64,000 bases of DNA from Weizmannia acidilactici (GTDB lineage: Bacteria > Bacillota > Bacilli > Bacillales > Bacillaceae_C): the NCBI RefSeq assembly GCF_008974185.1, contig NZ_BKZP01000005.1, positions 62,001-126,000 of the forward strand, read 5' to 3'. Both the position numbers and the translations under genes were made by a program. Position 1 is the first letter of the stretch. Every line of letters begins with the position of its first letter. Positions 60,630 through 63,509 of the stretch are shown here, piece after piece. The notes beneath the pieces were generated by a model. The model searched no databases. It was not told the origin of the DNA and saw only the letters and a program-made list of their open reading frames with translations.

Positions 60630-61402
60630 TGAAAAGAAGCGCGCTTATTACAGCCGTTTTTTTCACATGTCTGTTTGCTGTTTTCTCAATCGTTCCGCCG
60701 GCCAAAGCTGCGCCGAAGATACCCAAGCCGGTTGGGGACATATATGTTCAGGATTTTGCCGGTGTGCTGACAGACAGCCAGAAACAGAAACTGATCTCGC
60801 TTGGCAGGCAGCTGGATGATAAAACAAAAGCACAAGTCGCTGTTCTGACCGTGGACACGATCGGGAAGAATACGACAATTGAAACATTTTCCAATCAAGC
60901 TTTCCGCCAGTACGGGCTGGGCGACAAAAAAATGAACAATGGCGTGCTGATCGTATTGGCAGTGAAAGACAAAAAAATCAGAATCGAAGTCGGCTACGGC
61001 CTGGAAGGTGCGCTCCCGGACGGAAAAGTGGGCCGCATTCTCGACCAGTACGCGATGCCGTATCTGAAAGAAGGCAAGGAAGATGCAGCAGTTGTCAATA
61101 CGTATAAAAAACTGGCCAATGAAACGGCGAAAGAATACAATGCAAATATTCAATCAAAACCGCAGGCGTATGAACCGCCGCCTACCAATCAGGCTTCCCC
61201 GCTTTCGTTCTGGAAGCAGGTTTTAATCGGCCTCGGGGTGCTTGTTCTGATTTTGATCGATTTCAAGTTTTTCGGCGGCACTTTGACTTATTTTCTGCTC
61301 AATATCCTCTCGATGTTCTTTCATGGCGGCGGGGGGAGAGGGGGAGGCAGCAAAGGCGGCGGCGGTTCTTCCGGCGGTGGGGGAGCAAGCCGGGGGTGGT
61401 AA
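60629..61402 (+). CDS. TPM-domain (YgcG-like) membrane protein
   Basis: 257 aa. Signal peptide (residues 1-27), TPM/DUF477 domain (YVQDFAGVLTDSQKQKLISL, NNGVLIVLAVKDKKIRIEVGYG), one transmembrane helix (about 196-215), and a Gly-rich tail with the GGGGRGGGS and terminal SRGW typical of the family. ATG 60629 is preferred to GTG 60626. Confidence 0.9.
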   Translation: MKRSALITAVFFTCLFAVFSIVPPAKAAPKIPKPVGDIYVQDFAGVLTDSQKQKLISLGRQLDDKTKAQVAVLTVDTIGKNTTIETFSNQAFRQYGLGDKKMNNGVLIVLAVKDKKIRIEVGYGLEGALPDGKVGRILDQYAMPYLKEGKEDAAVVNTYKKLANETAKEYNANIQSKPQAYEPPPTNQASPLSFWKQVLIGLGVLVLILIDFKFFGGTLTYFLLNILSMFFHGGGGRGGGSKGGGGSSGGGGASRGW

Positions 61403-61408
61403 CTTTCA

Positions 61409-61440
61409 ACACGGGGAAATTCGCTTCGTGTATTTTTTTG
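61409..61440 (+). terminator. terminator after lemA-TPM
   Basis: ACACGGGGAA / TTCGTGT-like stem and ATTTTTTTG. Confidence 0.6.
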
Positions 61441-61555
61441 TCAAAGGAAAAAAGTTTCATGGTTTTGTCATTGGTTTTAGCCACTTTTGTCGAATATAAA
61501 GTGTAAGGATTTTATGGAAGATACGTGAAAAACCTTGCACTTGGCGGCCATTTCA

Positions 61556-63016
61556 ATGTACAAAAAAACGGAATATCAGTTAACTTTCGTAGAAGATTTT
61601 TTTCTACCATTCGGCGGAAAATTAAATAAAGAAAATCGCTGGGTTCGCCTGGCTGAAGTTATTCCTTGGTGGAAAGCTGAAGAAAAGTACGCCAAGTCCT
61701 TTAAGAATAAATTAAAAGGCGAACGAGCTTACTCCGTAAGAATCGCTCTTGGAGCTCTCTACATCAAAGAACGGCTTGGGCTGACTGACCGTGAAACTGT
61801 CGAACAGATCACAGAAAACCCGTATTTGCAGTATTTTATCGGGTTGCCGGAATTTCAGGAAAAAGCGCCATTCGACCATTCTTTGATGCCTCGTTTCAGG
61901 AAACGTCTGGGCGCAAATATCATCAATGAACTCAATGAGTGGATTGTTCTGGGAGAACAGAAACGCCAGTCGGAAGAGACATCTGAAGAAGATGACAACG
62001 ATGATGATAATCATGATGATGACGATCATGACGGTGACGATCATCATCCTTCCTGTCCAGCTTCGAAAGAGAGCCCGAGTGAATCGGCTTCTGCTGAAAC
62101 GAAGAACAAAGGAAAGCTAATCCTGGACGCAACCTGTGCACCGGCCGATATTGCTTATCCCACGGACCTTGGGCTGTTGAACGAAGCTCGTGAGAAACTG
62201 GAACATATCATTGATGTGCTGCATGAGCCCCACAAAGGAAAGCAACAAAAGCCACGGACCTACAGAAAAAGGGCCCGCAAGGCCTATCTTTCTGTCGCCA
62301 AACAACGCAAAGCTGGTGCCCGGAAAATCCGGAAAGCCGTCGGCAAACAGCTTCGATACGTGAAACGTGATCTTGAGATCATTGAAAAGCTTGTTGCCCA
62401 AAGTTCCTTGTCCCTTTTGAACAAAAATGAGTACCGGCAACTTCTTGTCATTCATGAGCTTTACCGCCAGCAGGCAGAAATGTACAAAAAGAAATCTCGA
62501 CGGATTGACCACCGGATTGTGAGCATTTCCCAACCGCATGTCCGCCCAATTGTAAGGGGCAAGGCAAAAGCGAACGTGGAGTTCGGTTCAAAAGTCGCCA
62601 TCAGTGTTGTCGATGGCTATGCCCTGATTGAAAGGCTCGATTGGGAAAACTACAATGAAGGCATCACTCTCAAGGAATCTGTTGAAAATTACTACAACCG
62701 GTTTGGTTTCTACCCAGAAGCAATTCTGGCGGACAAAATTTACCGGAATCGTGAAAATCTGGCTTACTGCAAATCTCTCGGCATCTAAAGTGGGCCACGG
62801 CTTGGCTGCCCATCCAAGACAGAAGACCATTCCTTGGAACGATTGGCGAATCAGGATACCTCTGAACGTAATGCCGTTGAAGGCAAATTTGGTGAAGGCA
62901 AGCGCAAATACGGGCTGGACCTTATTCGAGCACGACTTCAGGAGACAAGTGAAACAGTTGTAGCTCTCCAATTTCTCATCATGAACTTGGAGCGAAAGCT
63001 CAGAGTTATTTTTTGA
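61556..63016 (+). mobile_element. IS5/IS1182-type transposase gene with an in-frame stop
   Basis: DUF772-type N-terminus (KGERAYSVRIALGALYIKER, FDHSLMPRFRKRLG), first Asp in LILDATCAPADIAYPTDLG, second in PEAILADKIYRNRENLAYC. A TAA at 62786-62788 interrupts the frame, which then continues open to 63016 with RNAVEGKFGEGKRKYGLD, the segment that should carry the catalytic Glu. An acidic/His-rich low-complexity insert (EDDNDDDNHDDDDHDGDDHH, about residues 146-166) lies between the domains. The chain is complete otherwise. I could not locate the element's terminal repeats. Confidence 0.85.
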
Positions 63017-63017
63017 A

Positions 63018-63509
63018 ATCTTTACAAAAAAAGTTTTGATAGTAGAAGGCGATACAGAAGAAGTTGTAATAAGAGAAACAGTTGCAAGGATGCCTGAAGA
63101 CATGTATAAGGATTTCTCATATAATTGGGAAGTTGTAAAGGCAAGAGGAAAGGCTGCAATTATTCCATTAGTGAAATATTTTAACGCTTTAGGTATTTAT
63201 CCAAATGTTATACATGATAGAGATGGTGGTATAGAAAAAGCCTTTAATTTTAACAAGTCAATTTTAGATGCGGTAGGAGATCCAAATCGAGTTTTTCCTA
63301 TTAAAGAGTGTATGGAAGACCTGTTAGGGTATAAATCTTCAAGTTCCGATAAACCATATAAAGCTTACCATTTTATAAATTCCAACTGGGGGAAGAAATG
63401 GGAAGATATTAATCCAGAGTGGAGAGGAATAATTGAACAGATTATATACGGTAAAAAGGAAATTAATACTTCATATATTGGAGTAGCGGCAACGAAAGAT
63501 GAAAATTAA
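63018..63509 (+). pseudogene. TOPRIM end of an OLD-family ATP-dependent nuclease, decapitated
   Basis: The frame IFTKKVLIVEGDTEEVVIRE, then AIIPLVKYFNALGIYPNVIH-DRDGG matches the TOPRIM domain of OLD-family nucleases (the conserved Glu in EGDTE, the D-x-D in HDRDGG). The N-terminal ABC-type ATPase is missing: the frame begins where the transposase ends. The codon use and AT-rich DNA differ from neighbours. There is no start codon or ribosome site of its own (a TTG at 63036 cuts into the TOPRIM strand), so it is a remnant. Ends IGVAATKDEN. Confidence 0.75.

What the first reader, a model, noticed from the sequence alone, without database searches (positions are those of the whole stretch)
61556..63509. 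Transposase abuts the TOPRIM end of an OLD-family nuclease: remains of a defence gene
The last 160 residues of an OLD-family nuclease begin within a few bases of the transposase 3' end. OLD nucleases with an ATPase head occur in anti-phage systems (for example GajA of Gabija, and other OLD-type systems). Here the ATPase head is gone, the DNA is markedly AT-rich, and no partner gene (such as a GajB helicase) is visible in the remaining 500 bases. The nuclease may have been interrupted, with its head lost or located elsewhere, and the window ends just after it.
Basis: partly seen in the sequence, partly recalled or inferred. Interest (0 to 1): 0.55.

Follow-up and report, generated by a model that had tools for sequence, protein, structure and literature searches.

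The report
Headless remnant of OLD defence nuclease
A worn-down jumping gene sits directly against the last quarter of a broken bacterial OLD nuclease gene whose ATP-using front part has been deleted, so this is most likely an ordinary dead remnant and not a working defence system.

Summary
Window 63019-63509 encodes the C-terminal ~163 residues of an OLD-family ATPase-nuclease (Pfam OLD-like_TOPRIM, E 8e-14). It starts inside the last bases of a transposase remnant. The ATPase head is absent from the whole assembly and from four same-genus genomes. The closest intact gene (640 aa, 67% identical over the shared part) belongs to a conserved family; 72 of 72 analysed loci match the fragment at their C-terminal TOPRIM. 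Neighbours, length and fold comparison place it with stand-alone Class 1-type OLD, not Gabija. The insertion sequence has lost both terminal repeats and its transposase is broken. IS and OLD homology overlap by about 11 bases at the junction. This looks like a deletion with one end in a decayed IS and the other in the OLD gene, not a clean insertion. The nine TOPRIM positions checked are kept, but the only in-frame start before the catalytic glutamate is a TTG inside the first TOPRIM strand, with no ribosome-binding site that I could see. In YbjD, a published stand-alone OLD, the part without the ATPase had no anti-phage effect. Verdict: a pseudogene remnant, low interest.

The parts
61464..63029 (+). 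Remnant of an IS5-family insertion sequence; both terminal inverted repeats lost (29 bp on the left and 69 bp on the right, measured against the intact G003 copy)
   Evidence: 84.9% identical to L037 565-2134, where the whole element is L037 536-2203; the 12-base repeat is not found in window 61300-63300
61535..62788 (+). Truncated transposase ORF, 417 aa (513 aa in the intact copy)
   Evidence: ORF; NCBIfam IS5 family transposase E 3e-111; intact copy
63019..63029 (.). Junction: bases in which IS homology and OLD homology overlap
   Evidence: blastn ends; sequences printed; longest exact match of other IS copies across the junction is 8-9 bases
63019..63509 (+). OLD TOPRIM remnant, C-terminal ~163 residues including the natural stop; matches residues 481 onward of the 640-aa intact relative

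Best explanation
This is a pseudogene remnant. An AT-rich, probably horizontally acquired stand-alone (Class 1-type) OLD ATPase-nuclease gene sat near an IS copy. A deletion, probably by short-homology recombination, removed the first ~480 codons of the OLD gene together with the right end of the IS and fused the IS interior to the start of the TOPRIM domain. The intact protein most likely worked as an ATP-regulated phage sensor that unleashes a metal-dependent TOPRIM nuclease. The remnant has no ATPase, no proper start signal and most likely no function. Shown: domain identity, loss of the head, loss of both IS ends, the overlap at the junction, and intact relatives. Inferred: the order of events, the recombination mechanism, the ancestral defence role, and the lack of expression.
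For: TOPRIM domain. Intact relatives in long open frames, found with the fragment alone. Head absent from the assembly. Both IS terminal repeats absent and transposase truncated. IS and OLD homology overlap at 63019-63029. The left flank is a chromosomal gene that same-genus genomes share without the IS. A related plasmid copy (pBpOF4-02) lacks the counterpart of residues 1-121, so 5' loss has happened in this family before. The first in-frame start is an internal TTG and the first ATG lies after the EGDTE motif. In YbjD the part without the ATPase had no anti-phage effect (PMC13261556, first of two parts of the text read).
Against: The frame is open without a stop, and the nine TOPRIM positions checked are the same in 72 of 72 sequences, the window included, so decay after truncation is not visible; truncation may be recent or selection may persist. 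No expression data. The pre-deletion arrangement was not found in any genome searched.
Confidence: 0.84

Rival explanations
1. The IS inserted cleanly into the OLD gene, and the head lies on its other side or was carried elsewhere by a rearrangement.
For: The IS remnant and the OLD fragment are directly adjacent. The draft assembly has 123 contigs, so part of the genome could be missing.
Against: Both IS ends are missing. The left neighbour is an intact chromosomal gene. No head is found in the assembly, whose completeness is given as 100.
Confidence: 0.05
2. The fragment is a remnant of a Gabija gajA gene that has also lost its gajB helicase.
For: The best PADLOC score of the fragment is GajA PDLC00085, 3e-10.
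Against: The full-length relative scores Old 4.1e-61 against best GajA 1.4e-26. No helicase family is in 2 or more of 130 nearest neighbours of relatives. The TOPRIM model fits Class 1 (Z 15.3) better than Class 2 (Z 10.3-11.6).
Confidence: 0.05
3. The headless TOPRIM is a working small protein: a nuclease, or a domain that interferes with other OLD proteins.
For: Open frame; EGDTE, the paired aspartates and a lysine are kept; the domain is predicted to fold completely.
Against: No start before TOPRIM strand 1 apart from one internal TTG, and no Shine-Dalgarno sequence that I could see. Headless YbjD was inactive against phage (PMC13261556).
Confidence: 0.05
4. The junction is an assembly artefact.
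For: Draft assembly of 123 contigs; several IS copies exist in the genome.
Against: This IS copy is only 85-95% identical to the other copies in the genome, and the longest exact match of other copies across the junction is 8-9 bases, short for a misjoin.
Confidence: 0.04

Closest known systems
Class 1 (stand-alone) OLD nucleases: P2 Old, Thermus scotoductus OLD (PDB 6p74), E. coli YbjD/OldB
   Same: TOPRIM fold and catalytic motif; the best structural match is 6p74 (Z 15.3, rmsd 2.7, 136 aligned); relatives are single genes without a recurrent partner; the best PADLOC model of the intact relative is Old
   Different: The window copy has lost the whole ATPase head and its start
Gabija GajA (Class 2 OLD)
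   Same: OLD-type TOPRIM; PADLOC GajA model 3e-10 for the fragment
   Different: No GajB helicase in the window, before the contig end, or recurring beside relatives; fold match weaker (Z 9.5-11.6)
IS5-family insertion sequence
   Same: Transposase remnant, NCBIfam IS5 family E 3e-111
   Different: Both terminal repeats lost and transposase truncated

Membership tests
Class 1 OLD nuclease | N-terminal ABC-type ATPase head | tested here: not met
   Absent in the window and in the assembly; present in the intact relative P0001 (AAA_15 E 8.9e-46). The window copy is therefore a remnant, not a member.
Class 1 OLD nuclease | C-terminal OLD TOPRIM with acidic motif | tested here: met
   PF20469 E 8.2e-14; EGDTE and DRD positions identical in 72 of 72 sequences
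Class 1 OLD nuclease | Single gene, no helicase or reverse transcriptase partner (judged on relatives) | tested here: met
   Largest neighbour cluster is in 7 of 72 loci; no helicase or RT family in 2 or more of 130 nearest neighbours, with 14 of 144 slots left out
Gabija (Class 2 OLD) | UvrD-like helicase gajB directly downstream | tested here: not met
   None to the contig end; none recurrent beside relatives
Gabija (Class 2 OLD) | Extra helical region in the C-terminal part (about 50 aa longer than Class 1) | tested here: not met
   The fragment is 164 aa and aligns to 158 residues of Class 1 6p74 (Z 15.3), against about 202 residues of Class 2 6nk8 (Z 11.6); definition from PMC10568477 and PMC6755086, passages
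Retron OLD (Class 3) | Reverse transcriptase next to the OLD gene | tested here: not met
   No RT family in 2 or more of 130 nearest neighbours of relatives; none seen near the remnant
PARIS (AriA/AriB) | ATPase AriA with a separate TOPRIM protein AriB | tested here: inconclusive
   The head of the relative matches AriA 3.5e-47, but its TOPRIM is fused in the same protein; AriB was not searched for on its own
IS5-family element, intact | Terminal inverted repeats and full-length transposase | tested here: not met
   Repeat absent in window 61300-63300; transposase 417 aa against 513 aa

The most novel reading that the evidence does not exclude
A headless OLD TOPRIM, freed from its ATPase, is still expressed from an outside promoter as a small nuclease, or as a dominant interfering domain that blunts OLD proteins of incoming plasmids and phages.
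Probability: 0.04. Interest if true: 0.45.

Novelty: new member of a known kind. Interest (0 to 1): 0.12.

Why it matters
Little, beyond correct annotation: a tool that calls Gabija or OLD from the TOPRIM alone could report a defence gene here that is most likely dead. The useful by-product is a clear family of relatives (72 loci, mostly about 600-640 aa) of a stand-alone OLD lineage, which could help to test whether isolated OLD genes defend bacteria on their own. A 2023 review names this as an open question (PMC10568477, passages read).

Tried and rejected
Head elsewhere in the genome: searched with the 640-aa relative; only its residues 481-625 were found, here. Intact copy in the same genus: none in 4 other genomes; weak hits in G001 (E 0.004, residues 9-59) and G004 (E 0.01, residues 278-414) are to the head region and were not followed up. 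Viral contigs: 2 pattern matches, none confirmed. A sequence search of the PDB gave only 6p74 at E 0.3, so a fold comparison was used. The mad4 hit (4e-5) was not pursued, because OLD and GajA models score better. The 2.2 kb downstream showed no homology to the related loci fetched by then, with blastn for the DNA and tblastn for the DUF4357 protein. Short stand-alone TOPRIM family: rejected, which were queried with the fragment alone; one match, G097, is a 34-residue stretch in a 38-aa frame and was not followed up. The 80-locus scan cannot speak to this, because both of its search patterns lie in the head. AriB and other TOPRIM families are not listed; nothing is concluded from that. The literature search for DUF2130 with defense and phage listed 8 papers, none of which holds DUF2130. 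Another search did not bring up the V. cholerae OLD paper cited in PMC13261556.

Full report
The observation. Window 61464-63509 holds two damaged genes back to back. The frame at 63015-63506 encodes an OLD-like TOPRIM domain (PF20469, E 8.2e-14), with PADLOC hits to GajA (3e-10), Old (1.2e-8) and mad4 (4e-5). It is the only PF20469 match in the genome. The window lies on contig C5, which continues for only 1688 bases beyond it. The DNA after the fragment, to the contig end, holds a 299-aa DUF4357 protein and an IstB fragment, both on the minus strand, and no helicase.

What the gene was. Queried with the fragment alone, tblastn finds 50 plasmid records; all 30 listed are annotated AAA family ATPase. 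It finds one phage record. In 397 genomes of the order there are 8 matches besides the window itself, 7 of them in open frames of 577-645 aa; the eighth is a 34-residue stretch in a 38-aa frame. The nearest complete gene (P0001, 640 aa, Alkalibacillus haloalkaliphilus by the record title of L042) is 67% identical over its residues 481-625. It carries AAA_15 (E 8.9e-46) and OLD-like_TOPRIM. The C-terminal stop of the window copy is the natural one.

A scan of species genomes with an alignment of four full-length relatives found 148 relatives and kept 80. In 76 of these 80 loci an ORF matched P0001, and 72 of them scored over 300 bits; the other 8 loci were dropped. The window fragment matches 72 of those 72 at their C-terminal part. 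Both search patterns of that scan lie in the ATPase head, so the presence of a head in these loci is by design and is not counted as evidence. The plasmid pBpOF4-02 copy lacks a counterpart of residues 1-121, so 5' loss has happened in a second copy of this family.

What happened here. A same-genus genome (G003) holds a complete copy of the element: 1668 bp, L037 536-2203, with the repeat GGGCTTGCTGAA at both ends and one 513-aa transposase. The window copy matches only L037 565-2134, so 29 bp on the left and 69 bp on the right, including both repeats, are gone. Its transposase stops at 417 aa. DNA homology to IS copies ends at 63029 and DNA homology to the OLD gene starts at 63019, so the join lies in about 11 bases that resemble both. 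The left flank is a chromosomal gene that same-genus genomes share without the IS. A clean insertion would leave both IS ends and put the head on the left; neither is seen. A deletion or other illegitimate recombination with one end inside the IS and the other at the start of the TOPRIM domain explains this; that mechanism is inference. Misassembly is unlikely, because the longest exact match of other IS copies across the junction is 8-9 bases, but no reads were available.

Could it still work? The TOPRIM is predicted to fold as a complete domain (pLDDT 87.5, pTM 0.82). The nine positions that I checked, among them EGDTE and the DRD aspartates, are the same in 72 of 72 aligned sequences, the window included. 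But the frame has no start before TOPRIM strand 1 other than an internal TTG (63036), and the first ATG (63090) lies after the EGDTE motif. I saw no convincing Shine-Dalgarno sequence before the TTG; that is my reading of the printed bases, not a test. In E. coli YbjD a construct without the ATPase lost all anti-phage effect, while one without the TOPRIM kept it (PMC13261556, first of two parts of the text read). By analogy this remnant is inert.

Which class. The intact relative scores PADLOC Old 4.1e-61, AriA 3.5e-47 (head only) and best GajA 1.4e-26. The fragment model matches Class 1 TsOLD (6p74) at Z 15.3, rmsd 2.7, 136 aligned; Class 2 C-terminal structures score Z 10.3-11.6 and GajA Z 9.5. 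The full-length model does not separate the classes (6p74 Z 21.8, GajA 21.4, Eco8 20.7). Neighbour genes do not recur: in the flanks of up to 6 kb the largest cluster, which I take for tyrosine recombinases, is in 7 of 72 loci. Of 130 nearest neighbours (14 of 144 slots left out: 5 empty, 9 over 950 aa), DUF2130 is in 6, N6_N4_Mtase in 3 and SAVED in 2, and no helicase or reverse transcriptase family is in 2 or more; families in a single neighbour are not all listed. The literature defines Class 1 OLD as single genes and Class 2 as paired with a helicase and about 50 aa longer (PMC10568477, PMC6755086, passages read). So the ancestor was most likely a Class 1-type OLD. Membership of the window copy itself fails, because the ATPase is gone.

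How the ancestor worked. From the OLD literature (PMC10568477, passages; PMC12409363, passages) OLD proteins couple an ATPase to a two-metal TOPRIM nuclease; the trigger and target of this family are unknown. That it defended against phage is inference. It rests on the family's membership in OLD and on some relatives lying beside other defence genes, for example a SAVED-domain operon on a Klebsiella plasmid and a nearby gene on the Alkalibacillus contig that I take for a TIR protein from its sequence, not from a search.

Verdict. It is an ordinary decayed remnant of a known kind. Interest is low.

Noticed in passing
L103:195-1418, L104:2584-4035, L106:2800-4125, L083:8240-9583: A DUF2130-type protein lies 4-6 bases upstream of the OLD gene in three alphaproteobacterial/Rickettsiales MAG contigs and 431 bases downstream in Hahella; DUF2130 is the commonest family among the nearest neighbours (6 of 130). 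A possible partner in a sub-branch.
   Followed up: partly
L036:4886-7006 (G003) and L130 (G000:C12): Two species of the genus share 2121 bp at 99.95% identity beside flanking DNA of about 76% identity, which suggests a recent transfer.
   Followed up: no
L009:6117-7468 (beyond the window end): A DUF4357 protein and an IstB C-terminal fragment follow the OLD remnant before the contig ends, which suggests an accessory stretch of decayed mobile DNA.
   Followed up: partly
L023:7864-9468 (plasmid pBpOF4-02): The closest plasmid relative lacks a counterpart of residues 1-121 of the intact protein, so 5' truncation recurs in this family.
   Followed up: partly
L025:1-6435 (Klebsiella plasmid pS245-2): An intact OLD relative lies about 500 bases downstream of a nucleotidyltransferase, ThiF, Mov34 and SAVED gene row that looks like a CBASS operon (the name is my reading of the annotation).
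   Followed up: no
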